Positions 4,540-35,179 of a stretch of 35,249 nucleotides of DNA are shown here, piece by piece. Position numbers and translations under genes: made by a program. The stretch is taken from positions 1-35,249 of the IMG/VR virus record IMGVR_UViG_3300022187_000103; one strand, given 5' to 3'. The stretch comes from a virus. The notes below the pieces were generated by a model that worked only from the letters and a program-made list of their open reading frames with translations, did no database searches and had not been told where the DNA came from. The first letter of the stretch is position 1. Each line of letters starts with the position of its first letter.

Positions 4540-4556
4540 TCGAATGATGGTAAAGT
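4528..4556 (+). promoter_or_regulatory. Possible sigma70-like promoter before the 480-residue virion gene
   Basis: TTGATA (4528-4533), a 17-base spacer and TAAAGT (4551-4556) give a reasonable -35/-10 pair. The predicted transcription start falls inside the 12-bp palindrome at 4555-4566, and the next gene starts at 4583. The -10 match is only fair, so this is a hypothesis. Confidence 0.3.
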
Positions 4557-4566
4557 GCAATTGAAC
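4555..4566. repeat. Dispersed palindrome copy (junction)
   Basis: GTGCAATTGAAC; on the - strand it reads GTTCAATTGCAC followed by TTTA. It lies in the short gap between the endolysin and the 480-residue gene, 16 bases before that ATG. One of twelve near-identical copies in the window. Confidence 0.8.
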
Positions 4567-4582
4567 TAATTGAGAGGTCTCA

Positions 4583-6025
4583 ATGTTACCGTTTCTTTTT
4601 AGCTTAGGACTGCCCGCTCTTGCTCCAAGTATAGGACTTGGTGGACTCTCTGGTGCCGCTCTTGCTGGCATGGGTGCTGGCCTTGGCTCTTTTCTTGAAA
4701 CAGGTGACGTTGGTAAAGGCATAAAAACTGGTATGCTGTCTTTCTTGGGTGGCAAACTTCTAGGTGGCTTAGGCGGTGGTGTAGCGGGCTTAAAGGATAC
4801 AGCGGCTGGCAATGCAGTGCTGTCAGGAAAAGCTCAGGCGGCTATGAGTCAAGGTGCATTCCAAGAGGCAGTCAAAGCTGCTGGGACTAAGGTTCCATTC
4901 TCAGGAATACTTGGTGAAAACGTGGGTTCTGCCATTCTGCAACCTGGGATTATGACTGCAGCAGGTCTAAGTTCTGCTGTAAGTGCAGCGCAGCAAGAGC
5001 CAGAAAAGGGAAAAGATGGTGAAAGATTTGAACCACCTCTACCAACATCGCTAAAAAGACAGGTAACTATAGGTGATCCTCTCGAAGGTTCTGGTGAGCA
5101 AACTTACTTTGACTACACGTATAGTCCAGACCCTACGCTTGAATATCCATATATAGATTACGGTACTTTGCAGGAGAAAAACCGCGAGGTTAAAGGAATG
5201 TATTTGGGTGGTATTGCAAGTGTAGGTGGAGGCCACCCTATGTTTATGGGTTTAGGAAGAGGTATAAGCAGCGCTCTTTCTCAATCTCAAGGTCCAAAAA
5301 TACAAGCGTTTGTGCAAAAAGTTGAGAACGATGCACGATCAGAGTTTGGCGATGACTTATTTCAAGCACCTCAAGTAGCCACTCAAATTCCTACTCAAAT
5401 GCCTATGAATCGTTTACAGCCAGCGATACCTACGGAACCTATGAATGCACTTGAGCAAGCGCAGCAAGCTAGAAATAGTAGTGTTCTCTCAGGACTTTAC
5501 AATTCTGGCAAAGGAGCTGGGTTGGTCAACGCGGAAGCTATACCAGTTAATGCAATGGCTCGCCCCGCGAATATGTTCCAGAGTGCATTGGGCATGGCTG
5601 AAGGTGGTGAAGTGGAATCCATGAATGAGAAAGATATCATTCTAGAATCCATCAAAGCCATAAAGGGAATGAAGGAAGACGCAGAAGCTCAAGAGATTTT
5701 GGGTGTATTCCTAGCGACATATGGTGAAGAAGCTCTTCGTGATCTAGTAAGCTCTGTTCAGTCTGGTGAGTTTGATGAAACTGTTGAGCGCTTTGAAAAC
5801 GGTGAGAATGGAATCGTTCGTGGGCCTGGGGATGGTTCTGGAAGTGATGACAAAGTTCCTGCAACCTTAGATAATCAACAGGATGTCCTGTTGACGGAAG
5901 GCGAGTATGTCTTCCGCGAACCAACTACTGATGCGCTTACCAAGGCGTATGGTGGTGGCTTTTTAGATAAGATCAATGAAGCTGAAGGAGATGCACCAGA
6001 GGTGCTGAGAAAAATGGTGGGTTAA
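4583..6025 (+). CDS. Internal virion (injection) protein, 480 residues
   Basis: The start follows GAGAGG at a good distance. The first 75 residues are Gly/Ala/Leu-rich and hydrophobic (GLGGLSGAALAGMGAGLG), as in membrane-active ejection proteins. The C-terminal part holds the motif GPGDGSGSDDKVPATLDNQQ followed by TEGEYVF, near residues 413-448. I recognise this as a variant of the GPGDGxSDxxPAxIDGxxPAxLSxGEFV motif shared by internal proteins of many marine podovirus-like phages. The gene heads a run of four further injection-type genes, so I infer that it is ejected with the DNA. No enzymatic signature is visible. The exact function is unknown. Confidence 0.6.
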   Translation: MLPFLFSLGLPALAPSIGLGGLSGAALAGMGAGLGSFLETGDVGKGIKTGMLSFLGGKLLGGLGGGVAGLKDTAAGNAVLSGKAQAAMSQGAFQEAVKAAGTKVPFSGILGENVGSAILQPGIMTAAGLSSAVSAAQQEPEKGKDGERFEPPLPTSLKRQVTIGDPLEGSGEQTYFDYTYSPDPTLEYPYIDYGTLQEKNREVKGMYLGGIASVGGGHPMFMGLGRGISSALSQSQGPKIQAFVQKVENDARSEFGDDLFQAPQVATQIPTQMPMNRLQPAIPTEPMNALEQAQQARNSSVLSGLYNSGKGAGLVNAEAIPVNAMARPANMFQSALGMAEGGEVESMNEKDIILESIKAIKGMKEDAEAQEILGVFLATYGEEALRDLVSSVQSGEFDETVERFENGENGIVRGPGDGSGSDDKVPATLDNQQDVLLTEGEYVFREPTTDALTKAYGGGFLDKINEAEGDAPEVLRKMVG

Positions 6026-6445
6026 TTGAGAGTAAGTGCTGTTCCGAAGGAGGCGGTCAAGTACATATGGAAGGACGTTGAAAGGGTACTAGAGAAAAGT
6101 GTTGCTACGGCTGAAACAAAGATTCAGTTGATAGATGTTCTGAAAGGAATTCTGGACGACACTTATGTTCTTTGGGTAGTATTTGAGGAAGACGAGGTTG
6201 TTGCAGCATTTACTACTAGAATAATTGAGTATCCGCAGCGAAGAAGTATGGCACTTGATTGGGTAGGTGGAAGTAGAATGAAAGAATGGTTGGATATCGG
6301 TATGGAAAAGGTTATCGAATTTGCCTCTCTTAATAACTGCGAACACCTAGAAGGCTATGGTCGTAAGGCTTGGGGGAGGGCTTTAAATAAATATGGGTTC
6401 TACCCAGAGTATATTGCGTTTCGCATGGAGATAGAAAATGGGTAA
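6026..6445 (+). CDS. GNAT-fold acetyltransferase-like protein of the virion cassette
   Basis: This 139-residue protein begins with a TTG placed directly after the preceding TAA; no ATG gives the same N-terminus. The pattern (YVLWVVFEEDEVVAAFTTRIIEYP in the middle, then a GRKAWGRALNKYGFYPE-like end) is that of a minimal GNAT fold. It has the beta-beta-alpha core and the arginine-glycine turn region that normally holds acetyl-CoA. I have seen this type of small protein between internal virion genes in marine phages. It overlaps the next gene by 8 bases. Whether it has acetyltransferase activity, and on what target, cannot be told from sequence. Confidence 0.55.
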   Translation: MRVSAVPKEAVKYIWKDVERVLEKSVATAETKIQLIDVLKGILDDTYVLWVVFEEDEVVAAFTTRIIEYPQRRSMALDWVGGSRMKEWLDIGMEKVIEFASLNNCEHLEGYGRKAWGRALNKYGFYPEYIAFRMEIENG

Positions 6446-7934
6446 AGGCAGTTCAACGCCAACACAGCAGGTAGTGCAATCAACAGGTCTGCCTGATTAC
6501 GTTGACCCGTATTTTAAGCGGCTCCTCAAGGGTGCTGAAGAGGCCACGATGCCCTTCGATCCAGAAACTGGAGAGTCAACCTATACCCCATATACAGGTG
6601 AAAGACTTACTCGAAGCGCAAATTATGGGGATATCACTGGTGCCAGACAAGATATTCGTGACATAGCGGGTGCTGGCCTTACTGGTATGAATGAAGCTCT
6701 TGCTGCTCAGAGGCTTGGCATGTCTGGAATAGCGGGCCTTGCAATGGCACCGCCTAGCTTTACCGCATCTAATTTTTCTGCAACAGGTGTTGATCCTTAC
6801 TCTGGCTTTATTGCTGGAACTGCTGATCCATATTCTAAATTTACGGCAGGTACTGCAGACCCATTTAGTGAATTCCAACAGGCAGACTTTAACAAAGCTC
6901 AGGGTCAAGCGTATGACTTTGGTCCCGCCCGTCAGTTCACAGGACAAGAAGTCGCTGACTACATGGACCCATACATGCAGAACGTGGTTGATCTGCAGAA
7001 ACGTGAAGCAATTAAAGACTTTGCTCAACAGCAAGCGGGTAGAGATGCATCAGCAGTTCAAGCGGGTGCGTTTGGTGGTTCTCGTCAAGCCGTTGCTCAA
7101 GGTATGGCAGAGCAAAACTTACAGCAAAGACTTGGTGACATTCAGCAGGTAGGTAGCCAAGCAGCCTTTGACCGTGCGATGCAGATGTTTGAGTCTGACC
7201 GTGAAGCACAAATGGATGTTGAAGGTCGCCGTGCGGCAGAATTAGCCAGAGTTCAGGGTATTGACGTTGGCGAAACAGGACGCACACAGACGGGTGCCGC
7301 AGCAGAGATGGCACGAACACAGGCTGCAAGAGCGGCTGAACTTGCACGGACCCAAGGCATTGGTCTTGATGAGGCGGCACGAGTTCAAGCGGCAGAGGCG
7401 GCAGAGCTTGCTAGAACACAGGGCATCGGGCTTGATGAGGCCGCTCGTATACAGGCGGGTCAAGCTGCTGAGTTAGGTCGCACACAAGGTATCGATGTTG
7501 GTGAGGCGGCTCGTATTCAGGCAGCAAATGCGGCAGAGCAAGCTAGAATTCAAGCCGCTCTAGAGGCACAAAGGTACGGTACTGCAGGTCTATATGGCGA
7601 CTTAATGGGCGCAGGTCGCGGTCTTGTTGGCTTAGGTGAGCTAGAGCGTGGCACTGATATACAAGGTGCGCAGCTTCTAGAAACATTAGGACGTGATATT
7701 CGTGGGGAAGATCAGGCTAGACTTGATCTTGCATATCAAGACTTCTTGCGTCAGCAAGACTATCCGATCAGTCAGTACGAGAGATACGCAGGTATCTTGA
7801 GTGGTGTGCCGACTGGTTCTTTGGATCGCACAACTCAGCAGTATGCAAGCTACAATCCAATCCAACAGGCTCTTGGTGCAGGAATCTCTGCACTTGGTTT
7901 ATACAGGGGACTAGGCGGAGGTTACGGAGCTTAA
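6438..7934 (+). CDS. Internal virion protein with 11/22-residue helical repeats
   Basis: This is a 498-residue protein. Residues 1-60 are Pro/Thr-rich with a DYVDPYFKRLLKGAEE helix. Residues 110-160 hold three approximate copies of a GxxDPYSxF motif (VDPYSGF, ADPYSKF, ADPFSEF). Residues 266 to about 378 are built from Ala/Glu/Arg/Gln-rich repeats of 22 residues, each made of two 11-residue halves. The rest is helical, followed by a small Gly-rich end. Long Ala-rich helices and lack of enzymatic motifs are usual for ejection or internal core proteins of short-tailed phages. Its neighbours are other injection-type genes. The family is familiar from marine phage genomes, but I cannot name it. 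Confidence 0.6.
   Translation: MGKGSSTPTQQVVQSTGLPDYVDPYFKRLLKGAEEATMPFDPETGESTYTPYTGERLTRSANYGDITGARQDIRDIAGAGLTGMNEALAAQRLGMSGIAGLAMAPPSFTASNFSATGVDPYSGFIAGTADPYSKFTAGTADPFSEFQQADFNKAQGQAYDFGPARQFTGQEVADYMDPYMQNVVDLQKREAIKDFAQQQAGRDASAVQAGAFGGSRQAVAQGMAEQNLQQRLGDIQQVGSQAAFDRAMQMFESDREAQMDVEGRRAAELARVQGIDVGETGRTQTGAAAEMARTQAARAAELARTQGIGLDEAARVQAAEAAELARTQGIGLDEAARIQAGQAAELGRTQGIDVGEAARIQAANAAEQARIQAALEAQRYGTAGLYGDLMGAGRGLVGLGELERGTDIQGAQLLETLGRDIRGEDQARLDLAYQDFLRQQDYPISQYERYAGILSGVPTGSLDRTTQQYASYNPIQQALGAGISALGLYRGLGGGYGA
7233..7571 (+). repeat. In-frame 66-bp tandem repeats coding a hendecad helix
   Basis: Units start at 7233, 7299 (half unit of 33 bp), 7332, 7398, 7464 and 7530 (partial). 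Each full unit encodes two 11-residue halves of the type AAELARTQGIG and LDEAARVQAAE. The third and fourth full units are almost identical in protein, whereas their DNA differs at synonymous positions. This indicates selection on the protein rather than a recent DNA duplication. An 11-residue period predicts a nearly straight or right-handed coiled coil. Confidence 0.85.
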
Positions 7935-7935: not shown

Positions 7936-10035
7936 ATGAATATCATAGAGCAGACAGAAGCACTCAAAGACCTTCCCGATCAAAGATTAATGCAAGAGAT
8001 GCAGGCACCCACAGGGTTTGCACCTCAATTTCTTGTTCTTAGTGAGCTTAAACGCCGCAAAAGAATGCGTGATGAGTATCAGCGTCAGCAATCTGCTGAC
8101 ATGAAGACGGTTGCCGAAGAGACTATTACTGCAGCAGGTTTACCACAGGGTGGCATCATGCAAATGTCACGGGCAATGAACCCAAATAGTTCAATTGCAC
8201 AAAACACTGGAATGGACCAGGCACCTCAAATGCAGCCCACTAGAATGGCTGATGGTGGTGTGGTTCGCATGTTCGATGGTGGTGTTTCTGGCGGCACTAT
8301 GTCTGCTATTGCAAACCTTAAAGCAAATTATCCTGATGTATACAGGTCGGCAGTTGAGCAGGGCATTGTTGAAGAAATAGCAGGGTACATGCAAAATGTT
8401 GCTCAAGATGTGCCGTATGGCCTTGATGCTTTTGAAGATCCACGTAGCTTTGATTTTCTGAAAAGCATGTTTACTGACCCATCTAATCGTGTCGTAACTG
8501 AGAAACAGCGTGAAATAGAAGAAAGCCAACCAGAAAGAGCATTACAGGCAAGGATTGATTCTAGGAATGCACTAAGTAGGTATGGCGACAATGATCCTGT
8601 ATTTGCAGAAGGTTCTGTGGCTGAATACCTAAGAGTTACACCAGAAGGTGGGTTCCCTAGAGCCAGTGAAGTGTATGATATTTCAGGAACTATGGTTTCT
8701 CCAGATGTTGAAGACTATATTCCACAAATTAGTGGTGAGCAGAGCTTTGTTTTGCAGAGGCCAAAAGGCGCTATGCTTAACCAACCCTCTACAAAGGGTG
8801 GTGATAAACCTGCTGCTATAAACGAACCCTCTACAAATGCATCTACATTTACTCAACTGATTGATGTTCGTGACCCAGTACCACCATACGGTGGTTTGTA
8901 TTCAGAGCGTGACCGTTTAATGGCTGCGCAAGATGCATTTACTCAGGGTATTGGTTCTCTTGGTGGTCCGCTTACACAGGATGAAGCTTATGCAGCAGCG
9001 GCTCGTCAGAGAATAGAGTCACCTATAAGTACTCAAGTTGAGCAGCCAATGCTTGTTGATCAGATGGCAACAGCAAGCATCGAAGACGAATCCCCAATGA
9101 TCGCAGAGCTTGCTCGCCAAGCTGAAATCAAGCGCATGATGGAGATCAACGAAATTCCAGAGCCTTCTCCAGAAGCTGGCCCTATATCTTCTGCCTTAGT
9201 TGACCTTGGTGAGGCGGGAATTGAAGGTCTTGGAAGTTCTTTTGAAGCAGGTGTTGATGCTCTTCAGTCCTTGACAGAAGGCGGAGATGGGATGCCAGAG
9301 CCTACCCCTGCATCCGCACTGCCAGAAGGGTTTGCACTTGGTGATGGGACAACAGCAGAAGGTGCCTCGTCCTTTGGTGAGTTACTGAAATCATCTACTG
9401 ACAAAGATGACACATCTACAAACCCTGCGGGAAATAAAACCACTGGCGGGCAGAAGGCTAGTGCAACCTCATCTCTTGGTGGCATCGAAGGTCGTATTGC
9501 AAAGATGCTTGAAGATAAAGAGAAGAGCGTTCAGAGCGATAAGTGGATGGCGCTTGCTCAGGCGGGTATGGCCCTTATGTCATCAAAGGAGCCAACGCTT
9601 GCGGGTGCTATAGGTGAAGCAGGTCTTGTTGGTGTGGGTGCCTTGAAGAAAGGTAAAGCTCAGTATGAGAAAGATGTTCTTGATCTTCTAACTCTACAGC
9701 AACGTATAGATGAGCAGAGAGCACGGGCTTCTAGTAAGTCTGGGGGTCTAACCGCAAGCAATATGATTAGCCTGATGGATGATCTTCGTAGTTATAAAGG
9801 CGACATCCAAGATAGAATTGATGCCCTTAATGATCCTACAAACTTAATGAGTGAAGAAGTGAAGGCCGCGCAGCTTCAAAGACTTCAGGCAGAATTGATG
9901 CGTACTGATATCGAGCTTGGCACTTATCGTAACGCTCTTAGTGGCGGGGGATCAAACAGAACTCCGATTGACGTAAGAGGTGGATCACAAACTCAGAGTG
10001 GTGTAGGATACAGCTTAGGCACAGCTAAACAATAA
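7936..10035 (+). CDS. Internal virion (injection) protein, 699 residues
   Basis: The start lies one base after the previous stop. The N-terminus has a charged helix (residues 25-50, ending LKRRKRMRDEYQRQQ), then MADGGVVRMFDGG near residue 107. Such ADGGVV repeats occur in several marine podovirus internal proteins. The centre (residues 150-500) is acidic, Pro/Ser-rich and likely disordered. The C-terminal part has a KWMALAQAGMALMSSKEPTLAGAIGEAG-like stretch, too long to quote in full, followed by a coiled-coil region. This organisation fits a protein ejected ahead of the DNA. Base use matches its neighbours. A copy of the dispersed palindrome sits inside the gene at 8189-8200. Confidence 0.6.
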   Translation: MNIIEQTEALKDLPDQRLMQEMQAPTGFAPQFLVLSELKRRKRMRDEYQRQQSADMKTVAEETITAAGLPQGGIMQMSRAMNPNSSIAQNTGMDQAPQMQPTRMADGGVVRMFDGGVSGGTMSAIANLKANYPDVYRSAVEQGIVEEIAGYMQNVAQDVPYGLDAFEDPRSFDFLKSMFTDPSNRVVTEKQREIEESQPERALQARIDSRNALSRYGDNDPVFAEGSVAEYLRVTPEGGFPRASEVYDISGTMVSPDVEDYIPQISGEQSFVLQRPKGAMLNQPSTKGGDKPAAINEPSTNASTFTQLIDVRDPVPPYGGLYSERDRLMAAQDAFTQGIGSLGGPLTQDEAYAAAARQRIESPISTQVEQPMLVDQMATASIEDESPMIAELARQAEIKRMMEINEIPEPSPEAGPISSALVDLGEAGIEGLGSSFEAGVDALQSLTEGGDGMPEPTPASALPEGFALGDGTTAEGASSFGELLKSSTDKDDTSTNPAGNKTTGGQKASATSSLGGIEGRIAKMLEDKEKSVQSDKWMALAQAGMALMSSKEPTLAGAIGEAGLVGVGALKKGKAQYEKDVLDLLTLQQRIDEQRARASSKSGGLTASNMISLMDDLRSYKGDIQDRIDALNDPTNLMSEEVKAAQLQRLQAELMRTDIELGTYRNALSGGGSNRTPIDVRGGSQTQSGVGYSLGTAKQ
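8189..8200. repeat. Dispersed palindrome copy (inside the 699-residue gene)
   Basis: GTTCAATTGCAC, an exact match to the CAC form of the motif. It encodes part of a Ser-Ser-Ile-Ala-Gln string. The copy inside the annealing-protein gene encodes Ser-Ser-Ile-Glu-Gln in the same phase. Confidence 0.6.
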
Positions 10036-10046: not shown

Positions 10047-13000
10047 TTGGGCGTTTTTCAACAAGTAGGTCAGTTCTCTGGTAATCCATATTCTTTCACT
10101 ATCGCAGGTGATGCACCGACTGAGCAGGAAGCTGCTCGTATCTCGCAGATATTAGATCAGCAAGAGTCACCTTATCGTCAGCAATATGAGTCTATGTATG
10201 GCGGTATAGCTGCTCTGCCTCAAGCCGCAGAAGAAGAGGGGCCAGACACTTCTTTTGGTAGTGCGTTTACTTCAGCGTTAGATGCTCCTCTTGAAAACTT
10301 CGCTACTACAGCGAGACTTACTGGTTACGAGGGTCTTGCTAACTTCCTTAGTGATGCTGTTGAAACACCAGAGAATTATGAAAATGCCTCTGAGAAATTC
10401 ATCAATGAGGGTGGATTTGGTTTCAGACTTGGATACGCACCAAGAGCTTTGGTCGAGCAAGCTGGCCAGTTCGCGGGTTCATTGTTGTCTAGAGGCGCGG
10501 GTGCAGTAATAGGTGGTGCTGTAACCCTTGGTAACCCTGCAGGTGTTTTGGCGGGAGCTATAACTGGCCCCGCTTTGTTTGAGGCAGTTCAGCTTGTTGG
10601 TCCGATTGCAGAAGAACGCGCAAGAAACAACGGCAGAGACACACCAAACAGAGATGATTGGTTGGGTGCTATAGGTAGCTCAAGTGCATCTGGTGCATTA
10701 AACGCAATCGCCCCAGGAATGGCTGGCACTTTAAGAAAACTTGTTGTTGAAGGTGGGACTGAAACGCTTCAGTCAGTAATTCAACAGACTGGTGAGACCG
10801 CAGGTACAGACAAGGGTCTTGATATCAGCTTGAAGCAAGCGGTTGGTGAGGGTGTCCTAGCGGGTGGTACTGTTGCCGCTATCTCTGGCCCCATAGACCT
10901 TGTTAAGGGCAAGCCTAAGCCTGAAGCTGACGTGCAGCTTGATGAAGATATTCTAGAAGAAGCTCAGGTAACCAGAGAAAGATTGGGGTATGCATCTACT
11001 ATAAGCCAAGAAATCACAGCAGATGCAGAGGCTAAAGCAGAAGCGGCCATACAATCTGAGACACCTCAAGAAACATCGCAAGAACCTGCAACATTTTCTG
11101 AGGTTACAACAGAAGAAGAGTTTGCCGAAAAGACATTTAACAAGGCGCAATATGATCGCGTACTTCAGCAAATCAAAGCTGATATTGCACGAGAGAAAGC
11201 ATTGAGTGTCACTGGCATACAGCAGGGCGTAAAGAAAGATATACCTGAGACAAAGGTCAGTCAGGTTCGTGACATCATGGCAGAGCTAGAGACACGAGGA
11301 TACTTGCAATCTGAGCCGCAACCCGCTGCAGTTCGTGATCGTGCTACAGGTGTTCGATATACACCCGCTCCTCAATACGCAGCCACACAGAACATCGTGC
11401 CTCAATTGAAGACACCAGATGTCGCTTATCGTCGCCAAATCGATATCGCCAATGAAGCGATAGAGAAAAACAACCGCATTATGGAAGACTTAAAACTTGA
11501 TTTGGATTCCGTCCGTCAGTTTGGTCGAGACTTGCAGGGTAAGCGTACCAGTGAGGATGCTATTAACTACGAGATCACAAGACTTAGTGAGCGCAATAAG
11601 CAGTACAATGGGGTTGTCAACGAAGCACAGCAGGGGCTGCAGCGCCTTGGTCGTTTGCCGTATGTGCCTCGTGTAACACCTGAATTCAACAGATCACAGA
11701 AGATCGAACGCAAGGTTGCAGCAGCCAAGGCTCGTAGTGTTGCGGATCAAGTGAAAGAAAAAGTTCAATCGAACAAACCTGTATTCACACCTGCCCTGAC
11801 TGAGAAACAGGACAAGGTATTCAAGTCTATCCGTGGTCGCCTTGATGGCTATGGACTAAAAGATGTTCGCCTCAGTGCAGAGCAGATTGTCGATGGTGGT
11901 GAAGGTACATATAACCCAACCAACCGCATGATCAGTTTGTCTATGGGTCTATATGATCCAAAGCTATCAGAGACAGAACTGTTTGATCGTGTGGGTGAGG
12001 TTCTTGATCACGAGACAGTTCATGCCCTGAAAGAGATGAACGTCATCAAGCCTGATGAATGGAAGGCACTGACCAATGCAGCGGCTAAGGTTAAGTACAC
12101 CAAGGTAAAGGGCGGCGAAAAGCAACAGCGCAAATACACATATCTAGACAGAGCCAAGCGTTTGTATGGCGATATGGATGCAGAAATCCAGTCTGAAGAA
12201 GCCGTTGCGGAGATGTTCCGTGATTACAATTCAGGAAGATTAGACTTAAAAGGAAAGCCCCAGGGGCTGTTCACGAAGATTAAAAATTTCTTCAAGTCTA
12301 TCATTGGCGGCGCTACAGATAACGGCTTCACAGATGTTCAATCAATCTTTGATGAGATAGTTGTGGGCAACATTGGTCAACGCGAACGTGGCGTTGCGGC
12401 ACAGCAGCAGACGGAACCCGCAGCACGTCAATCAAGACTGGCTGCTACAGAAGAAGAGATAGCTCCTGAAAAGGACATCAGAATGCCGTTGAATGTAGCG
12501 GCACCCAACGATCAAATACGTGCTGAAATTCAGCGCATGACAAACCAAAACCGTCCGCTGGTTAAGAGATTGATCAAGCGTATCGATGAAAGATTTGGAA
12601 CCAAGTCAGGTGATAACGCAAAGGACTTATCAAAGGTAACACAGAAGGCTCGTCGTCCTTCTATCCTAGCAAACAAGCCTTGGCATGATGTGTCTCACAT
12701 CCGTGATAGCTATCGCTTCAAGACAGTAATCGATGACTTCCGTGCAGTACCTGCAATCTTTGATGAGCTTCTAGCTGACGGAATATCTCTGGTTAAGATC
12801 GACACAGGCAAGCTATTCCGCCCCAAGGAATGGGGATGGCGCATCATTGCATTTGATCTTCGCATGCCAAATGGACAGCTTGTAGAATGGTATCTACCTC
12901 TGAAGGAATTAGAGGTTGAGAAGAAAGCTCGTGGTCACCTGATCTTTGAAGAGTGGCGCAACAAGACACAGGAAGAGTTGTCAGCGCAGCGTGATGCTTA

Positions 13001-16000
13001 CTTTGAGGCAATCGCTCGTAGTTACAGGAACTATGACGAAGCGTTCCAAGCTGCACTAGACCGTATGAACACTACTCGTCAGGATGCAGAGGCATCTTGG
13101 AGAAGCGCGGAAAGTTCACTGCTTGATGCTGCGCGAAATGCACGTAGATCATCAGGCGTTGGTATCTCTTCAGCAGGTACAGCAGAAGAAGGCATTATAG
13201 CACCCTCTGAGGTACGCACTGATGTGGAACCATCAGCTTTAAATATTAGTGCGCGAGAGGAGCCATCCTCTATTAGTGCAAAAGGTTCTGCCATCTTATC
13301 TACCTCCGATGACTATGTTACAGATGTGCCAGTCGAAGAACAAGTTAAGTTTTCAAGACTGCCTCGCACGTCCAATGTATCAGGTTTGCAGGACTTTATC
13401 AGAAATAATCCTGAAGGTTTCACAATTGATCCTGTCACTATGGAACCTGCATCTGGCGGGTTCGTTGTTGCACCTCTCAAGGAAGCCGAAATAATTGTCG
13501 GAGAGACCTTGCCAGAAGAAGTACTATTAGGCTATATAGAGGATAATAAGGATATTTCTGCCGCTGTCAATAAGCCAGTTTACCTTGGTGGGTGGTTCGA
13601 TAGTGACTCTCAGCAATACTTCTTAGACAACACTCTTATACTGCCGACTGCAGAAGAAGCATTGTATATCGCTGAGGCTGCAGACCAACTGGCTATCTTT
13701 GACCTGAACAATTTTGAGGAGATCAGGACTAATGAAGGAATCAGACAACTCCAAGAAAGTGGTGCTTACAGAGGTGACACCGCAATCGGATACCAAAGAA
13801 ACCTTGCAGAAGTTGGTCGCCGCTTTGCGGAAGCAAGGGATAACCGTAACGCCCGCCAAAGAGAACAGCTTACTGGAGGAGTAGAGGGCTTTAGGCAATC
13901 ACGTCTAACCCTACCTCTAACACCTGAGCAACGTGCCGCAAGTATTCTGGATTATCTAGACCCAGATACTGGTCAGCCTAAGTTCAAGAGCAAGCAAGGA
14001 TCAGAAACCCTTGTAAGTTTTGCCAACAAGCTGCTTGAGCTTCGAGGCACTCGTCCATACGACATCGTCAACTCAGAGCAAGACCGTGAAGAAGTCGCTC
14101 GCATCATGGCTGCTGAGGCAGAAGCTGCGCTTCTATCTAGCAGTGATGCCATTGGTTGGTACGATGCTAAGTTAAAATTAGCAAAACAGATTTTGTTCCC
14201 CGTGTATCCAGAGGTTTCTCCTCTGCGTCCAGATGGTACAGAGAACTCATTGTATGACCCTGCATCTGAGCATGCGTTTGATTACGCAACAGCCGTCACC
14301 TCAAACGGTTTGTCAGTAATCGATAACTACCTGCTGGCATCTCGCCAGTATGACGCATGGAAGAACAGCCAAGACGGAAGGTTCCCATTGTCTTCCTCTG
14401 GCAAGCAGGGTCAGTCCATGATCAAGGCATGGGAATTCTGGAACGCACTCACTGATCTTGGATATGACTCAAACCAGATCAACGAACTCCTTACAATGCA
14501 GATGCGTAAAGGTGACCTTGCTGCCTTAATGACAGATGTCTTTGGTGTCGAGCGTGTCAAAGATTTACCGTTCAAGATCGATGGTAAAGAGTTGGCTGAC
14601 GAGATTGTAGGTGTTGCTTATGTGATTGGCCCAAAGATTGGTAACGGTTTCTATCAGAACCTACGCGGTAACTTTAACCCACTTACAATGGACCGTTGGT
14701 GGATGCGCTTTGTCAACCGCATCACTGGTAATCCTATCGTCAACTATCGTGACGAGCTTGTGCAAGAAAACAAGGACAAGCTATGGGAGCTTATCTCCAA
14801 CCCAAGCCGTTTGACAGATACTGACAAGCAGCTCCTGGTGGATACATTGGAATCTCTTGATATCAATACTATTGAGAAAAGTGATATTGAACTTATTGCT
14901 CCACAAGTACAGAAAATCTGGGACAAGAACTTCTACAACAAGGCATTCAATGACAAGCTAGATGAGCTTGCTGATCAGTATGACTTCGTCGTTACATCTG
15001 GCGGCACTATCACTGGTCGTGATGCTGCCAAGGTTAAGAAACTAGCACAGGACGCACGTCCTAAATCTACAGACTTGGCACTATCTGCTAAGAACCTAGC
15101 GGGTAAGCTGAAGACAGCGCTACAAGAAGACCCACGCAATGCTCGTGAGCGTTCAGCTATGAGAGCAGCAGCTAACCGTGCAAGAGAGATACTTCGTCAG
15201 AGCAATCAGATCGGTGCCGATTTAACTAACGCAGACTTCCAAGCTCTTATGTGGTACGCAGAGAAGCGCATCTTTGAGGCTGGTGGTGTTCGTAAAGGTC
15301 GTGGTGATGATAACGACTACGCTGATGGCGCGATTGCCATCCTCAAAAACAAAGGTGTAAGCGATGACAAAATCAAAGCCACACTCCCCGATTCAGAGCG
15401 AGGACGGATCAGTGGTGTCAAATCTCAGCTCGACAGAGATTCTGAAATTGGCAGAGAGGTTGATGCGATACAACGAGGCCCAGAAGAAGGGAACTTCTTC
15501 GCCCCAAGAGAGTTAACTCTTCTCGATGGGTCGATGGCACCTCAGTCACAACTGACTACAGATCAGCTACAGCAAACAGAAGCTGACCTATCAGGTGTAG
15601 AAGTCGATCCAGAGTTACCGCCTCAAAGGTTCTCTCGCATGGTTCCCGCACAGGCACTTGTACCTGTACGTGCGCCCGTCAACATGGCAGATGGATCACC
15701 CAATCCTGTCTATGGTTACTTCAGAGATGATAGCACAGGGCGGCTTCGTCCTATTGTTCTACCCAAGGGATCACACAAGACATACGAGAGTGGCGTTGAG
15801 GTAGGACAAGGATTGTTCCACATTCAGCAGCGCAACCATGACAAAGAGCTTGTACTGAATTCAAAGTATAAGCGTGTAGAGAATGCCATCTTTGATCTTC
15901 TTCGTCGCTGGCAGGATCAGGGATACGATGACGGTGAGTCAGTTATATCCTATCCAAGTCAGGGTGGCATCGTCCTTGAGTGGCGGAATAACATGGCGTT

Positions 16001-18987: not shown

Positions 18988-18999
18988 GTTCAATTGAAC
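18988..18999. repeat. Dispersed palindrome copy at the convergent gene junction
   Basis: GTTCAATTGAAC is a perfect palindrome. It starts one base after the stop of the giant gene (18984-18986) and contains the TGA stop of the convergent gene on the - strand (18990-18992). It could bind a protein or act as a weak bidirectional hairpin, but no T-run follows. Confidence 0.8.
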
Positions 19000-21418: not shown

Positions 21419-21441
21419 AGCTTTCTCCACTCGCTTGAAAA

Positions 21442-21759: not shown

Positions 21760-22520
21760 TACTTCTTCTCCTTCGCAAGTTCTTGTTTCTTAGTTGAGAT
21801 CGCTGCCCCAACTGATTCATAGGCTGTGGAAGCCTCTTCTTTTGCGCGTTCAAACAATGGTTTGTTTGCCGCGTAAAACTTATTCAAAGTCTCAGTGCTC
21901 TTGATAGTATTGACCCAAGCTACAGCTACATCTGCCCAAACATCCCAATTGTATACAGCACGAGGCACACGATCTTCTTTCTTGTAGGCACCTGCGTTTA
22001 TCATGTATCCAAGCGGTCCGCCTGAAGCTTCCTCTTCTTTTTGTTCAATTGAACTTTTTTCTGAGGCGTCCTGTGGGGACGGTACAGGCGCGTTTGCTTT
22101 CTTTGTGGGGGTAGGGTTGGGTTTTTTATTTACCTCTTCCTGCCGCACCTCTCCGTCGCTCTGAGGGATATCCTCACCTGCATAGATGTAGTGACCCAGT
22201 CCGTGCATGGCGATAGCCTTCGCAAGGCAGCGCATTCTAGCGTCACTGATCTGTCGTGACGTTGGTCCAGAGATAGCGTTGTTTCTGTTATCCATAACAG
22301 GCAACCACATCATGTGGTCCTGATCTTCTACGGTTACAGTGACACGCACTTCAACGGTGCTATCTGGGTAAATGATATCATCGTGAACTTCATACGATGC
22401 ATTAGGGTATTTAGATTTAACCTCACCCCAAGCCCAAGCCCAAGACAGATAACTTAATCCCATCTTCTCTTGCTTCTTATCATTCACGTTAATTGAGGAT
22501 AGTGTTTTCCATACTGACAT
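21759..22520 (-). CDS. Single-strand annealing protein, Sak3/DUF1071 type
   Basis: The start at 22520 overlaps the exonuclease stop as TAATG and is preceded by GGAGAAA, so it is preferred to a start 12 bases upstream. The N-terminus (SVWKTLSSINVNDKKQEKMG followed by LSYLSWAWAWGEVK) and the GPTSRQISDARMRCLAKAIA helix with a final GLG motif match DUF1071. That group is the Rad52-related Sak3 family of phage annealases. The middle (residues 115-170) is a low-complexity, charged linker, and it is here that a copy of the dispersed palindrome occurs (22043-22054). Together with the exonuclease it forms a two-part recombination system acting on phage DNA ends. Confidence 0.85.
   Translation of the reverse strand: MSVWKTLSSINVNDKKQEKMGLSYLSWAWAWGEVKSKYPNASYEVHDDIIYPDSTVEVRVTVTVEDQDHMMWLPVMDNRNNAISGPTSRQISDARMRCLAKAIAMHGLGHYIYAGEDIPQSDGEVRQEEVNKKPNPTPTKKANAPVPSPQDASEKSSIEQKEEEASGGPLGYMINAGAYKKEDRVPRAVYNWDVWADVAVAWVNTIKSTETLNKFYAANKPLFERAKEEASTAYESVGAAISTKKQELAKEKK
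22043..22054. repeat. Dispersed palindrome copy (inside the annealing-protein gene)
   Basis: GTTCAATTGAAC, a perfect palindrome, followed by TTTTTT on the + strand. It lies in the low-complexity linker of the protein, where coding constraint is weak. Confidence 0.7.
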
Positions 22521-24020: not shown

Positions 24021-25802
24021 GTGCAGATCGAACAACAAGTTCGTGGCGAGGCGTACAGATTAGGGCAAGGTCAACACAAGATCAAATGTCCAAGCTGTTC
24101 CCCAAGCCGCAAAAACAAAACCGACAGAACGCTCTCTCTAAAAATTGAACAAGACAAAATACTGTTTCAGTGTTGGCACTGCAATCAGCAGGGGATTGTT
24201 CCGTTGGTAGAGCGAGTAGAAAAAATAAACAAAGTGGAAACAATGTCCGTAGCAAAAAAAATAGACAAGACCTCACTTACTGAGGCGGCACTGGCGTGGC
24301 TGAAGAGCCGTGGCATAAGTGCAGAAACAGCAGAGAAAGCAAACCTTCAGTCATCCGTCACATGGTTCCAATCGGTGGGACATGAGACACCAAGCATCTT
24401 ATTCCCATATCAAAATCATGAGGGTCAAGAGTACGCGCAGAAGATACGATCAATCGATAGCAAAGCGTTCATCTGCAATGGCGCACCCCAGACTTTCTTC
24501 AACCTAAAGAACGTGCAACGTGACGATGATCTCATCATTTGCGAGGGAGAAATGGATGCGCTTGCATTCATGGAGACAGGTTACGAAAGCGTTGTATCAA
24601 TACCAAATGGGGCGGTCATAAAGGTTGTCGATGGTAACATCGATCCGAAAGAAGATAATAAATTCAAGTTCTTATGGGCAGCAAAGAATAAGATCGATGC
24701 CGCTCGTCGTATCATCATCGCTATGGATGCAGACCCTGCGGGTCAAGCAACAGCGGAAGAGATCGCTCGTCGTATCGGAAAGGATCGATGCTTCAAGGTT
24801 GAGTATCCAGAGGGGTGCAAGGATTGCAATGATGTACTCCTGAAACTGGGAAAGGATGGTGTTGATGATGTAGTGGTGGGCGCAAAGCCGTGGCCTGTCG
24901 CAGGGCTTTACGATGCCTCACATTTCTATGACCAGATCGATGACATCTATGAGAGGGGCATGGGCCGTGGCGAAAGCACTGGTTACGAGAACGTGGATGA
25001 TTTATACACTGTTGTCACTGGTCAGCTTACCGTTGTCACTGGGCATCCATCATCTGGTAAGTCAGAATTCATTGACCAGATCATGGTGAACATGGCGCAA
25101 GAGAAGGGGTGGAAGTTTGCCATCTGTTCTTTCGAGAATGAACCTCGTTTGCACATTGCCAAGTTGATCAGCAAGTATATCCGTAAACCATTCTTTGAAG
25201 GTGCAATGGATCGGATAACGCCAGACGAGCTGACGCGGGGTAAGGAATTTGTTCAATCGCACTTTTCTTTCTTGTACCAAGCTGATGGTTCCATGTCTTC
25301 AGTCGATAGCATCATCGAAAGATTGAAGGTTGCGGTCATGCGGCACGGTGTCAGAGGTGCCATCATTGACCCATACAATTACATTCAGAAGGGCCGTGAT
25401 GTCAGCGAGACTGACTGGGTATCTGATGTACTAACACGGCTCCGCGTGTTCGCTCAGGCGCATGGCATTCACCTCTGGTTTGTCGCCCACCCAACAAAGA
25501 TGATGCGTGACCAGACAGGCAAGGTTCCCGCCCCTAAAGGCTATGACATCTCAGGCAGTGCTGCTTGGTTTGCGAAAGCTGATGTTGGCTTGACAGTTCA
25601 CAGACCTGACCCATCTCACTCACGCGTATCAGAGATACACATATGGAAGTGTCGTTTCTCGTGGGTTGGGAAGCAAGGGGATACAGAGCTTGAGTTTGAC
25701 GTTCCTACATCTACATACAGGAAATACATACCAGACCCCATACTTGATGCGCCAACACCATACTCAGAAGTGGATATAGATTTTGACAGTATCTTCCCAT
25801 AA
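24021..25802 (+). CDS. Primase-helicase (T7 gp4-like)
   Basis: The GTG start has AGGAG 6 bases before it. The 593 residues hold a zinc-binding domain (Cys 23, 26, 51, 54), then a TOPRIM primase core with CEGEMDA (Glu 175) and MDADPAG (Asp 236, Asp 238). A DnaB-type helicase follows, with Walker A GHPSSGKS at 341-348, a Walker B-like GAIIDPYN near 445 and a FVAHPTKM motif near 480. This order is that of bifunctional phage primase-helicases, which unwind the fork and lay primers. No DNA polymerase is seen nearby, so the phage may encode it elsewhere or use that of the host. Confidence 0.9.
   Translation: MQIEQQVRGEAYRLGQGQHKIKCPSCSPSRKNKTDRTLSLKIEQDKILFQCWHCNQQGIVPLVERVEKINKVETMSVAKKIDKTSLTEAALAWLKSRGISAETAEKANLQSSVTWFQSVGHETPSILFPYQNHEGQEYAQKIRSIDSKAFICNGAPQTFFNLKNVQRDDDLIICEGEMDALAFMETGYESVVSIPNGAVIKVVDGNIDPKEDNKFKFLWAAKNKIDAARRIIIAMDADPAGQATAEEIARRIGKDRCFKVEYPEGCKDCNDVLLKLGKDGVDDVVVGAKPWPVAGLYDASHFYDQIDDIYERGMGRGESTGYENVDDLYTVVTGQLTVVTGHPSSGKSEFIDQIMVNMAQEKGWKFAICSFENEPRLHIAKLISKYIRKPFFEGAMDRITPDELTRGKEFVQSHFSFLYQADGSMSSVDSIIERLKVAVMRHGVRGAIIDPYNYIQKGRDVSETDWVSDVLTRLRVFAQAHGIHLWFVAHPTKMMRDQTGKVPAPKGYDISGSAAWFAKADVGLTVHRPDPSHSRVSEIHIWKCRFSWVGKQGDTELEFDVPTSTYRKYIPDPILDAPTPYSEVDIDFDSIFP
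25251..25262. repeat. Dispersed palindrome copy (inside the primase-helicase gene)
   Basis: GTTCAATCGCAC followed by TTTTC, one mismatch to the CAC form. The 17-base match including the flank is nearly that of the copy before the terminase gene (34528). Confidence 0.5.
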
Positions 25803-27144: not shown

Positions 27145-27156
27145 GTTCTATTGAAC
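27145..27156. repeat. Dispersed palindrome copy (junction)
   Basis: GTTCTATTGAAC, one mismatch, followed by TTTT on the + strand. It lies between the 57-residue gene (stop 27159-27161) and the 251-residue gene (start 27129) on the - strand. Confidence 0.8.
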
Positions 27157-29476: not shown

Positions 29477-29488
29477 GTTCAATAGAAC
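29477..29488. repeat. Dispersed palindrome copy (junction)
   Basis: GTTCAATAGAAC, flanked by six A residues on each side, placed between a terminator hairpin and the Zn-ribbon gene, 16 bases before that ATG. Confidence 0.8.
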
Positions 29489-32140: not shown

Positions 32141-32152
32141 GTTCAAATGAAC
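32141..32152. repeat. Dispersed palindrome copy (junction)
   Basis: GTTCAAATGAAC; on the - strand GTTCATTTGAAC followed by TTTTT. It lies between the 34-residue membrane protein and the 56-residue gene. Confidence 0.8.
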
Positions 32153-32189: not shown

Positions 32190-32294
32190 TCACCATGCGA
32201 GCATGAAAATCAGCAGCCCTACAGTGAAGGCCGTGAAGGCGATCCCAGAAACAAACGCTTCTAGGATCAAGAGAAAGCGGTCACGCTTATTCAT
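32190..32294 (-). CDS. Very small single-pass membrane protein, 34 residues
   Basis: The ATG at 32294 overlaps the stop of the upstream gene as ATGA; the TGA is at 32190. The product begins MNKRDRF, basic, and then has one long hydrophobic segment (LLILEAFVSGIAFTAFTVGL, followed by LIFMLAW). A positive N-terminus and a single helix indicate an inner-membrane protein with the N-terminus in the cytoplasm. Such small early membrane proteins are often involved in host takeover or in superinfection immunity, but nothing in the sequence shows which. Confidence 0.6.
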   Translation of the reverse strand: MNKRDRFLLILEAFVSGIAFTAFTVGLLIFMLAW

Positions 32295-32986
32295 GACGCA
32301 ATACCAAGCTCGTCGAGCATCGCCACAACGGCAGCATCGACAGTGTCGTTCTCGTTTTCTGCCTCAGCGGCAGCGGCCTTAGCAGCCTCAGTGTCACGGT
32401 ACGCTTTCCGCGCAGCCATCAACTCACGCATCGCGTTCTGGAACTCGTCCAGTTCGTCATCATCAAGGCCATCCTTGAAGACATCGCCCTGCACCTGCTT
32501 GCCGTTCTCATCCTTCTTGGTAGAGAACTTGCCGACAACTTGCTCTGCGAGGCGTTGAGCTTTTGACTTGTCGCTCTCACCCTTGACCGCCTTGGCAAGT
32601 TTGTTCTCGCTATCGATCTCCATCGCAGCAAGGTCACGCACAATGGCATCGCCAGTGTACTGGCTTGGGATGTCACCGATCTTTTCTTTGATCAGGCGCA
32701 CGGCACCCACAGAATTCTCGACGTACCGCTTGACGGTGGCCTCTTTCAGACCCGCCTCTTCAAGCAGCGCAGCGCGTAGCTTCTTAGACACGGCACGAGG
32801 TAGGTTGCCCTTGACCAGTTTGACGTGGGCGATTGAGGCGATCACCTCGCCATAGGCACCCATCTTCTCAGCGTTAGCCGCCTCGTTGTTGGTGCGGTTC
32901 TGACCCTTGAGGTCAGCAATGTTTTGCTCCGCTTTGTAAACAACATTGATCGAAGCATCTGAAACAATAAAATCTTTAGCAGTCAT
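32291..32986 (-). CDS. Helical phage protein of unknown function, 231 residues
   Basis: ATG 32986 is chosen because AAAAGGA precedes it by 8 bases and the longer frame begins inside the previous gene. The product is almost wholly alpha-helical and charged. Residues 20-45 are polar; AVSKKLRAALLEEAGLKEAT then reads like a helix-turn-helix-like stretch, followed by KRYVENSVGAVRLIKEK. The C-terminal third is Ala/Glu/Asp-rich (DELDEFQNAM, then AAKAAAAEAENEND). It may be a DNA-binding or scaffold-like early protein. No family is recognised. The stop overlaps the membrane-protein start. Confidence 0.5.
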   Translation of the reverse strand: MTAKDFIVSDASINVVYKAEQNIADLKGQNRTNNEAANAEKMGAYGEVIASIAHVKLVKGNLPRAVSKKLRAALLEEAGLKEATVKRYVENSVGAVRLIKEKIGDIPSQYTGDAIVRDLAAMEIDSENKLAKAVKGESDKSKAQRLAEQVVGKFSTKKDENGKQVQGDVFKDGLDDDELDEFQNAMRELMAARKAYRDTEAAKAAAAEAENENDTVDAAVVAMLDELGIAS

Positions 32987-33769: not shown

Positions 33770-33798
33770 TGCTGTAACGGCTGCATCCGCATCCTTGA

Positions 33799-34386: not shown

Positions 34387-34401
34387 CGTCCGACACCCAC
34401 T

Positions 34402-34460: not shown

Positions 34461-34490
34461 TGCACTAAACCCAATAAAACAAGGGATATC

Positions 34491-34519: not shown

Positions 34520-34527
34520 CTGGATTA

Positions 34528-34539
34528 GTTCAATTGCAC
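34528..34539. repeat. Dispersed palindrome copy (before the terminase gene)
   Basis: GTTCAATTGCAC followed by TTTTC, an exact match to the CAC form. A TTG in frame with the terminase gene lies 15 bases downstream (34555). Confidence 0.8.
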
Positions 34540-34638
34540 TTTTCTGGGGATCGCTTGGCCCAGATTTCAGGTGCTGATTTGGGGGGTGATTCGCAAGAGG
34601 TCAAAACCACGAAAGCCAAGCGCAGCGTCGAGGTCAAT

Positions 34639-35166
34639 ATGACAAGTAATAGGAACACAGGTAACAAGGGTAAGCCCAAGCTCACAATAGTGGGTAATAC
34701 AGGTAAGAAGACTACAGGCACCAGAAAGAAGAGTGCCACCAATACCAGAGGTCTCACAGACAAGCAGGAAGCATTCGCTCAGGCCATCTTTGAGGGGGCC
34801 AACTTTAGTGATGCGTATCGGCAGTCATATGATGCAGCAAACATGAGTAATGCAAGCATACACAATGAGGCTTGCCTGTTGGTCCAGAACCCCAAGGTGT
34901 CCATGAGATTAGAGCAGCTAAATGCTGAAAGGGAACAGCAGCGGCGCATGCAGAGCCTCTCGCGAGGTGACTTCGTTTTGAAACAGCTGACAGATGAGGC
35001 ACTGAACCCTGACAATTCTGATGGGGCTAGGGTCCGCGCTCTGGAACTACTGGGCAAGAGTGTTGCACTGTTCACTGACAAAGTGGAAACAGAGGATAAG
35101 ACTGAGCGGGACGCTGATGCGATCAAGGCAGAGCTACAGGCCAAGCTGGATCGCCTGTTGGGATAA
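34639..35166 (+). CDS. terS: Terminase small subunit
   Basis: ATG 34639 with GAGGT 4 bases before it is my preferred start (175 residues). A TTG at 34555, with GGGGA before it, would add 28 residues and matches the spacing seen between other palindromes and start codons. After a basic Thr/Lys-rich N-terminus comes LTDKQEAFAQAIFEGANFSDAYRQSY in two pieces, then SNASIHNEACLLVQNPKV. This is the helix-turn-helix pattern of phage small terminases. A coiled-coil-like middle with a C-terminal helix follows. The small subunit binds the packaging site and loads the large subunit, whose gene should follow beyond the window. Confidence 0.8.
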   Translation: MTSNRNTGNKGKPKLTIVGNTGKKTTGTRKKSATNTRGLTDKQEAFAQAIFEGANFSDAYRQSYDAANMSNASIHNEACLLVQNPKVSMRLEQLNAEREQQRRMQSLSRGDFVLKQLTDEALNPDNSDGARVRALELLGKSVALFTDKVETEDKTERDADAIKAELQAKLDRLLG

Positions 35167-35167
35167 A

Positions 35168-35179
35168 GTTCGATTGCAC
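35168..35179. repeat. Dispersed palindrome copy (after the terminase gene)
   Basis: GTTCGATTGCAC followed by TTTTC, one mismatch. It starts one base after the terminase stop. The remaining 70 bases hold no gene I can support; a GTG at 35233 could begin the next gene. Confidence 0.75.

What the first reader, a model, noticed from the sequence alone, without database searches (positions are those of the whole stretch)
4555..35179. A dispersed 12-bp palindrome family spread over the whole window
GTTCAATTGAAC, or its variant GTTCAATTGCAC, occurs with at most one mismatch at 4555, 8189, 11763, 17917, 18988, 22043, 25251, 27145, 29477, 32141, 34528 and 35168. A weaker copy (two mismatches) is at 14881. 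Most are followed on one side by TTTT, often TTTTC. By a rough estimate fewer than one such site is expected by chance in 35 kb. Seven lie in gene junctions, five inside genes. Distances between neighbours are mostly 1.9-3.6 kb, and near 3.0-3.6 kb in the left arm. Phages such as L5 use dispersed repressor sites (stoperators), but those are asymmetric and this motif is not one I know. Other options are a segregation or packaging mark, an architectural-protein site, or a recombination boundary sequence.
Basis: partly seen in the sequence, partly recalled or inferred. Interest (0 to 1): 0.87.

Follow-up and report, generated by a model that had tools for sequence, protein, structure and literature searches.

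The report
Phage-wide palindromic protein-docking sites
A marine virus of bacteria carries about twenty copies of one short mirror-image DNA word spread fairly evenly along its genome, and its relatives keep the same layout but spell the word differently, which points to landing pads for a virus-made protein that works on the whole genome.

Summary
In detail: 12 sites match with at most one mismatch; 300 protein-preserving shuffles average 1.4, maximum 5. The window is 13,958-49,206 of a near-complete ~60-kb podovirus-like contig with 19 matrix-called sites. (1) The DNA word itself is selected: at 25251 it is the least variable six-codon stretch, at synonymous positions, of 380 windows in 40 unique class-A primases. 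(2) Relatives keep the layout and change the word: class A GTTC-AATT-GAAC, B TTGTAC-N4-GTACAA, C AAGTT-N6-AACTT, cyanophage MinM2 GGTTCA-N3-TGAACC. (3) In a ~1.9-Mb MAG holding such a phage contig, all 17 perfect sites lie on that contig, so the reader of the sites is probably phage-encoded. I propose a new 231-aa early protein (32291-32986, -); its HTH-like helix changes with the word, but so do other genes, so it is a candidate, not a demonstration. No integrase or lysogeny repressor was recognised; an AlpA-like protein matches excisionase/regulator families. Most likely role: a genome-wide transcription brake, stoperator-like but symmetric; a MatP/matS-like organiser is a close rival. Nearest precedent: 17-bp repeats of unknown function in Cluster O mycobacteriophages.

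The parts
4555..4566 (+). site GTGCAATTGAAC, 17 bp from its edge to a start codon (gene 4583-6025)
   Evidence: shared with 5 of 11 compared class-A genomes
8189..8200 (.). site GTTCAATTGCAC inside ORF 7936-10035
   Evidence: shared with 5 of 11
11763..11774 (.). site GTTCAATCGAAC inside the 2979-aa ORF
   Evidence: shared with 3 of 11
14881..14892 (.). weak site GTGATATTGAAC inside the 2979-aa ORF
   Evidence: site matrix; same codons in close relatives; 0 of 11 by the <=2-mismatch scan
17917..17928 (.). site GTTCATTTGCAC inside the 2979-aa ORF
   Evidence: shared with 5 of 11
18988..18999 (.). perfect site at the junction of two convergent genes
   Evidence: shared with 10 of 11
22043..22054 (.). 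perfect site inside the Sak-like annealing protein gene (linker)
   Evidence: shared with 2 of 11, in G005 in another frame
25251..25262 (.). site GTTCAATCGCAC inside the primase/helicase gene, nearly frozen at synonymous positions
   Evidence: shared with 9 of 11
27145..27156 (.). site GTTCTATTGAAC, 16 bp from its edge to the start codon of gene 26374-27129
   Evidence: shared with 5 of 11
29477..29488 (.). site GTTCAATAGAAC, 17 bp from its edge to the likely ATG at 29460
   Evidence: shared with 2 of 11
32141..32152 (.). site GTTCAAATGAAC, 18 bp from its edge to the ATG at 32123
   Evidence: shared with 6 of 11
34528..34539 (.). site GTTCAATTGCAC in the leader of the small terminase gene
   Evidence: shared with 7 of 11
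35168..35179 (.). site GTTCGATTGCAC just after the small terminase stop codon
   Evidence: shared with 7 of 11
32291..32986 (-). gene of the candidate site-binding protein, 231 aa, HTH-like helix pair plus long C-terminal helix (start at MTAKDF; the mechanical ORF reaches 33094)

Best explanation
The palindromes are binding sites of a phage-encoded, sequence-specific dimeric DNA-binding protein that acts on the whole phage genome (this part about 0.85). The protein is most likely the 231-aa early protein at 32291-32986 (about 0.5). Mechanism, inferred: two copies of its helix-turn-helix-like domain read the two GTTC half-sites, the long C-terminal helix pairs the subunits, and the bound dimers sit every ~3 kb. 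Sites just upstream of ribosome-binding sites and inside long genes would act as roadblocks that damp transcription of the phase of infection that should be silent, as stoperators do, but symmetric and therefore blocking both directions (about 0.4 for this role). Shown: the sites, selection on one of them, their restriction to the phage contig in one MAG, and the change of word between clades. Inferred: the protein, dimer binding, and the effect on transcription.
For: Excess over protein-preserving shuffles. Synonymous freezing of the primase site: 0.09 bit against a gene mean of 1.08, lowest of 380 windows; not among the lowest in class B. Dispersed palindromes in classes A, B, C and MinM2 with different words but the same build, short inverted half-sites around a 3-6 bp centre. 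Sites on the phage contig only: 17 of 17 perfect ones in a ~1.9-Mb MAG. Candidate family found in 10 of 10 class-A and 6 of 6 class-B genomes compared, in five loci with the C word (0 of 6 class-C loci, whose contigs end before that gene), and distantly, twice, in MinM2. It was not found in HTVC023P, CRP-902, DSL-LC04, 023Pt_psg01 or BcepMigl (first 50 kb of each), where none of the four words stands clearly above chance. Helix and word in 80 loci, judged by helix group: KRY in 66 (A word), [NQE]K[ML] in 8 (B word), KKY in 5 (C word), 1 unassigned. KRYVENSVG is the second most conserved 9-residue window of 202 in class A. Placement: 40 of 149 sites lie 12-30 nt before an ATG with a ribosome-binding site, 44 such starts against 12.2 expected; 12 of 37 in MinM2 lie 17-28 bp before a start.
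Against: No binding data. Word, primase and candidate split along the same clades: 28 of 28 loci carrying both genes are concordant, so covariation cannot single out the protein. The predicted model (pLDDT 82, pTM 0.58) has no significant PDB match, so the helix-turn-helix is a reading of sequence and secondary structure only. No integrase or lysogeny repressor was recognised in the ~60-kb contig, so there may be no prophage to silence; the one hint the other way is that the AlpA-like protein matches PHROG families labelled excisionase and transcriptional regulator (E 5.5e-6 and 5e-4). Roadblocks in the middle of late genes would need to be lifted. Even spacing fits an organiser at least as well. 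The A word is thin (0.14-0.21 per kb) in eight high-G+C loci with KRY.
Confidence: 0.5

Rival explanations
1. DNA organiser: the same phage protein binds the sites and bridges them through its long C-terminal helix, folding, condensing or separating phage DNA during replication or packaging, as MatP does with matS, without acting on transcription.
For: Sites are more evenly spaced than chance even when the numbers of intergenic and coding sites are kept: P 5e-5 in G001, largest gap 6.7 kb, P 0.006; MinM2 P 0.0012. Three sites stand at 3.1 and 3.0 kb steps inside one 9-kb ORF with no gene start nearby. The best shared site, in 10 of 11 genomes, lies between convergent genes. No lysogeny genes recognised.
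Against: Evenness is weak or absent in several contigs: class B P 0.03, 0.43, 0.05, 0.78, 0.34 in G019, G021, G022, G023, G024; class A P 0.0001 to 0.11 over 12 related contigs. The start-codon association in class A and MinM2 is not predicted unless it only reflects where free space is.
Confidence: 0.3
2. Marks for another phage process: replication, recombination boundary, packaging or segregation.
For: The array seems to go with the early module: HTVC023P-like phages share structural genes with this phage but show none of the four words above chance, MinM2 shares the early module and has an array. Two sites flank the small terminase gene and each is shared with 7 of 11 genomes.
Against: The primase site is kept by synonymous choice, which a boundary left over from recombination would not need. 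Sites cover the whole genome rather than one locus. No ParA was recognised in the proteins scanned; the ParB-like protein at 20600-21430 (my reading) is absent from 6 of 10 class-A genomes that have the motif.
Confidence: 0.12
3. Sites for a host regulator or nucleoid protein.
For: A palindrome is a common operator shape; hosts are unknown.
Against: In the only genome bin found with such a phage contig, the 17 perfect sites are all on that contig and none elsewhere in ~1.9 Mb; whether that bin is the host is not shown. The word changes with phage clade.
Confidence: 0.06
4. RNA hairpins (processing, stability or termination) rather than DNA sites.
For: Palindromes near ribosome-binding sites would fold in the mRNA leader.
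Against: 34 of 149 sites carry GTGC in one half, which breaks the RNA stem; 0 of 149 carry it in both halves, which would restore pairing, though the scan admits that only with a perfect AATT centre. Predicted stems of the 19 G001 sites run from 0 to -5.9 kcal/mol and the primase site is 0.0 on both strands.
Confidence: 0.02

Closest known systems
17-bp repeats of Cluster O mycobacteriophages (Corndog, Firecracker; TGTTCGG-NNN-CCGAACA)
   Same: 34 symmetric copies in Corndog, spread over the genome between and inside genes, not in the host genomes the authors checked, in phages without integrase; function unknown (PMC4351075, sections 8 and 13 read). My dyad scan recovers it in Firecracker.
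   Different: Different word and spacing; one near-invariant word in that cluster, against at least four words in related clades here; no homologue of the candidate protein found in the 50 of 71 kb of Firecracker searched.
Stoperators of Cluster A mycobacteriophages (L5 Gp71, Bxb1 Gp69)
   Same: 24 and 34 dispersed short sites, mainly intergenic, different consensus in related phages, residues of the repressor helix correlating with site bases (PMC3029335, passages).
   Different: Stoperators are 13 bp, asymmetric and oriented with transcription, in phages with a repressor; here symmetric, and no integrase or lysogeny repressor recognised.
Dispersed motifs of Nostoc cyanophages A-1 (43) and N-1 (21)
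   Same: Many copies, mostly between ORFs, not consistently aligned with gene direction; the authors suggest promoters or stoperators (PMC4916379, passages).
   Different: Described as asymmetric; sequences not compared here.
Start-associated and extended start-associated sequences of Cluster K mycobacteriophages
   Same: Dispersed repeats close to translation starts, part of them with inverted repeats, function unknown (PMC3203893, passages).
   Different: SAS is non-palindromic, confined to one genome half and tied to starts; here about a quarter of sites are start-associated (40 of 149).
SPBRE of Bacillus prophage SPbeta and its repressor MrpR
   Same: A repeated element found in silico, later shown to bind a phage master repressor (PMC10516654, abstract and passages).
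   Different: 15-bp motif, described at intergenic regions of a prophage; MrpR has a tyrosine-recombinase fold.
matS sites and MatP of E. coli
   Same: A 13-bp site repeated 23 times over 800 kb, bound by an organising protein (PMC3330122, abstract in search listing).
   Different: Host chromosome domain, spacing ten times wider; no MatP match listed for the candidate.
Conserved inverted repeats of Streptomyces phage phiC31 (recalled, not found in the library)
   Same: Recalled: dispersed symmetric repressor sites.
   Different: Temperate phage; not compared here (one search found no paper).

Membership tests
Cluster A stoperators | 13-bp asymmetric site | tested here: not met
   Sites are near-symmetric; 103 of 149 have two identical GTTC halves
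Cluster A stoperators | One orientation relative to transcription | tested here: not met
   Sites with two GTTC halves, 103 of 149, have no clear orientation
Cluster A stoperators | Dispersed sites, mostly at gene junctions | tested here: met
   9 of 19 in non-coding DNA against 10.9% of positions, after leaving out five doubtful small ORFs: enriched, though just under half
Cluster A stoperators | Integrase and lysogeny repressor in the phage | tested here: inconclusive
   None recognised in the proteins scanned nor by eye; the AlpA-like protein matches excisionase/regulator families; not every small ORF was scanned and contig ends are not closed
Cluster A stoperators | Sites block transcription elongation | not testable with these tools
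   needs experiment
Cluster O-type dispersed repeats | Many symmetric copies between and inside genes, phage-specific | tested here: met
Cluster O-type dispersed repeats | Word TGTTCGG-NNN-CCGAACA | tested here: not met
   Words of classes A, B, C and MinM2 differ
MatP/matS | Binding protein homologous to MatP | tested here: inconclusive
   Pfam scan of the 231-aa protein lists no MatP model at E up to 1; fold searches gave no significant match either way
MatP/matS | Regular long-range spacing of a repeated short site (feature partly recalled) | tested here: met
   G001 P 5e-5; other contigs mixed
SPBRE/MrpR | Repressor with tyrosine-recombinase fold | tested here: inconclusive
   No significant PDB match for the 231-aa or the 251-aa protein
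ParB/parS | ParB with cognate ParA | tested here: inconclusive
   No ParA recognised in the proteins scanned; a ParB-like protein (my reading of the sequence) is missing from 6 of 10 class-A genomes

The most novel reading that the evidence does not exclude
A lineage of virulent-looking marine phages encodes its own genome organiser: a new family of dimeric DNA-binding proteins that bridges regularly spaced symmetric sites, with the site word and the reading helix switching together between clades so that each clade organises or silences only its own DNA.
Probability: 0.25. Interest if true: 0.85.

Novelty: new variant of a known kind. Interest (0 to 1): 0.62.

Why it matters
Dispersed symmetric sites in phages that are not obviously temperate were left open in the Cluster O paper: function unknown, binding protein unnamed. 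Here the same kind of array appears across a diverse, largely uncultivated marine lineage and in cultured cyanophages, with the word changing from clade to clade. That gives a natural set of site variants, a named candidate protein whose helix changes with them, and in MinM2/Pag-Yong1 a cultured phage to test. If the role is transcriptional it extends stoperator-like control to phages without recognised integrase or lysogeny repressor; if architectural it would be an unusual case of a phage carrying its own matS-like system.

Tried and rejected
Chance: rejected. RNA hairpin: rejected. Site at 17238: dropped, no A/T flanks and below the matrix threshold. AlpA-like protein as binder: in 21 of 22 genomes or loci compared, but its helix varies within class A. 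HTH-like 27872-28132: found in 3 of 10 class-A genomes. ParB-like 20600-21430: absent from 6 of 10 class-A genomes. The 251-aa protein 26374-27129 is in 19 of 22 with a site 16 bp upstream, but it was not found in MinM2 and its predicted model (pLDDT 87) shows no helix-turn-helix that I recognise and no PDB match; not excluded.

Limits of the dyad scan: it put GTTC-N4-GAAC among the four best palindromic dyads in only part of the class-A contigs; in others AT-repeats or few sites hid it, and in G012 it is missing. Its best palindromic dyads in HTVC023P, CRP-902, DSL-LC04, 023Pt_psg01 and BcepMigl reach log10 P of -3.7 to -7.1, which overlaps class-A values (-3.7 in the window, -7.4 in G001), so some other dispersed palindrome in those five is not excluded; the four words of this report are not clearly above chance there (0-6 copies against 0-6.3 expected; largest excess AAGTT-N6-AACTT in CRP-902, 4 against 1.4).

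Pfam's weak Herpes_ICP4_N match to the candidate (E 5e-4, below the curated cut-off) is treated as composition bias. Literature: no paper listed by searches describes these sites in this lineage, going by the titles, abstract starts and passages I saw; listings were capped; others (Pag-Yong1; phiC31 repeats) found no paper. In one search the column table for the 231-aa helix failed to print the helix; only its window ranking is used. In one search one class-A row, L059, is a class-C-like primase misfiled by a short-locus count, which makes the result conservative; the MAG phage (L132), which lacks the site, was not in that set.
Full report
What the sites are. With GTTCAATTGAAC and up to two mismatches there are 13 against 1.85 expected. 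A matrix built from 157 seed sites in 12 class-A contigs is A/T-rich, then GT[T/G]C, then AATT, then the mirror image, with A or T at 85-96% of the four positions on each side.

The genome. The record holding the window is 35,249 bases. It equals positions 13,958-49,206 of a 62,279-base IMG/VR contig, G001, whose ends repeat the same genes, so I take the genome to be about 60 kb. Structural genes resemble the HTVC023P group; the early module (primase/helicase, Sak-like annealing protein, exonuclease, RusA, AlpA-like protein, MoxR-like ATPase and VWA protein) resembles cyanophage MinM2/Pag-Yong1. No integrase, lysogeny repressor, ParA or phage RNA polymerase was recognised in the proteins scanned or by eye; not every small ORF was scanned. 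The AlpA-like protein matches PHROG families labelled excisionase and transcriptional regulator, the only hint of a lysogeny function.

Relatives with the same word (class A). Of 80 IMG/VR loci found with the primase, the 44 with at least 71% identity (L009-L051, L055) all have the word, 0.17-0.84 per kb at up to two mismatches; of the 36 with at most 67%, 17 have none, 18 have one, and L059 (4 kb) has two. Over 25 whole records, 18 class-A records have 6-20 matches against 0-3 for the reversed control word; the other 7 have 0-2 against 0-2. The matrix sites in G001, with 0.6 expected.

The DNA word is under selection. Inside the primase gene, the codons TTT GTT CAA TCG CAC TTT TCT at 25251 are nearly frozen: mean synonymous entropy of the six-codon window is 0.09 bit against a gene mean of 1.08, the lowest of 380 windows in 40 unique class-A sequences, while neighbouring codons vary freely; in class B the same place is not among the lowest windows. 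The codons are identical in G014 (54% G+C); in G012 (57% G+C) two of them differ. Only this site was tested quantitatively. Sites also move: the phage contig of a Porticoccaceae bin lacks the primase site at that codon but has another in the gene, and the Sak-like linker carries a site in different reading frames in G001 and G005. Of 19 G001 sites, one between convergent genes is shared with 10 of 11 compared class-A genomes, the primase site with 9, and others with 0-7; several compared contigs are incomplete, so these are lower bounds.

Other clades have other words. A search for over-represented dyads found class B, TTGTAC-N4-GTACAA: 16, 9, 12, 12, 11 and 13 copies at up to two mismatches in G019-G024 (G019 and G021 include one overlapping pair each), and class C, AAGTT-N6-AACTT, in G025 and relatives. 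MinM2 has 37 copies of GGTTCA-NNN-TGAACC at up to one mismatch in 65 kb. The method recovers the published Cluster O repeat in Firecracker. In HTVC023P, CRP-902, DSL-LC04, 023Pt_psg01 and BcepMigl (50 kb each) none of the four words is clearly above chance; their best palindromic dyads are no stronger than log10 P -7.1, but the scan is not sensitive enough to exclude another array there, as it also missed the word in some class-A contigs.

Phage-specific. In the ~1.9-Mb Porticoccaceae bin, all 17 perfect sites are on the 62.5-kb phage contig and none elsewhere; the listing is capped but sorted by mismatches, so the perfect ones are complete. The contig has 27 sites at up to two mismatches, of which the last two repeat the first two, as expected from end redundancy. 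Whether the bin is the host is not shown.

Placement. In G001, after leaving out five doubtful small ORFs, 9 of 19 sites are mostly non-coding, against 10.9% of positions (P 7e-5), and spacing is more even than chance with those numbers kept (P 5e-5; largest gap 6.7 kb, P 0.006). In 12 class-A contigs the simple evenness P runs from 0.0001 to 0.11; in five class-B contigs it is 0.03, 0.43, 0.05, 0.78 and 0.34; in MinM2 0.0012. These contigs are related and partly incomplete, so the tests are not independent. Of 149 sites from 12 class-A sources, 40 lie 12-30 nt before an ATG with a ribosome-binding site (44 such starts against 12.2 expected; at 31-60 nt 19 against 19.6). In MinM2, 19 of 37 are intergenic and 12 lie 17-28 bp before a start, while five stand inside its 8.4-kb ORF.

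Which protein. Over 10 class-A, 6 class-B and 6 class-C genomes or loci, the AlpA-like protein is found in 21 of 22, the 251-aa protein 26374-27129 in 19, and the 231-aa protein 32291-32986 in 16 (all of A and B; the class-C contigs end before that gene), and the 231-aa family turns up in five further loci with the C word. I favour the 231-aa protein. It has a helix-turn-helix-like stretch (LLEEAGLKEATVKRYVENSVGA; predicted helices 64-77 and 82-103), a beta hairpin and a 50-residue C-terminal helix. Over 80 loci, judged by helix group because many are short, 66 have KRY in the second helix and the A word, 8 have [NQE]K[ML] and the B word, 5 have KKY and the C word with little of the A word, and L246 is unassigned; the A word is thin (0.14-0.21 per kb) in eight high-G+C KRY loci (L228, L229, L231-L236). 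KRYVENSVG is the second most conserved 9-residue window of 202 in class A, whereas the AlpA-like recognition helix is about as variable as the rest of that protein. MinM2 has two distant homologues with AKR[LV]VE (hhalign probability 93%); a tblastn of the window protein finds nothing in 50,697 phage records. Against this: 28 of 28 loci with both genes are concordant with primase clade, so covariation is confounded with ancestry; no PDB fold matches; no Pfam family reaches its curated cut-off and no PHROG match is better than E 0.019.

How it may work. The dispersed phage sites with a proven reader that I could look up are repressor sites: stoperators (PMC3029335, passages) and SPBRE/MrpR (PMC10516654, abstract and passages). 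By that precedent and by the start-codon association, a genome-wide transcription brake is my first choice, about 0.4. Even spacing, sites inside very long genes and at convergent junctions, and the absence of a recognised integrase or repressor fit a MatP/matS-like organiser (PMC3330122, abstract in listing) nearly as well, about 0.3. The closest published array is that of Cluster O, whose authors argue against control of transcription initiation and leave the function open (PMC4351075, sections 8 and 13).

Noticed in passing
window 20600-21430 (-): Protein with a ParB/sulfiredoxin-like stretch (LLDGQQRLMACEKSG; my reading, Pfam gives no significant hit), present in only some class-A and class-B genomes.
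   Followed up: partly
window 28142-29266 and 29540-30559 (-): A DUF2201 metallopeptidase/VWA protein and a MoxR-like AAA ATPase, a pair also annotated in MinM2.
   Followed up: partly
window 10047-18986 (+): A 2979-aa ORF whose C-terminal third matches giant phage proteins of unknown function (phrog_14770, phrog_616).
   Followed up: no
window 26374-27129 (-): Fast-evolving 251-aa protein present in classes A, B and C, no family, confident predicted model (pLDDT 87) without PDB match; a site lies 16 bp upstream of its start.
   Followed up: partly
window 7311-7548: Three copies of a 106-nt repeat offset by 66 nt inside ORF 6438-7934.
   Followed up: no
G009, G010, G013, G018 (IMG/VR contigs): Strong excess of AT-dinucleotide repeats in several class-A contigs.
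   Followed up: no
L163/L164 (MinM2) 47979-48818 and 54908-55471 (-): MinM2 carries two paralogues of the candidate protein, and its sites are denser in part of the early region.
   Followed up: partly
L247 3003-3713 (-) and 3724: In the Porticoccaceae-bin phage contig a perfect site lies just upstream of the candidate protein's frame, as if it controlled itself.
   Followed up: no
L128 (HTVC023P) and L131 (023Pt_psg01): TTAA-N20-TTAA is in excess in both (16 against 3.9, 20 against 4.6), at the edge of the gap range scanned; no longer shared sequence is apparent.
   Followed up: partly
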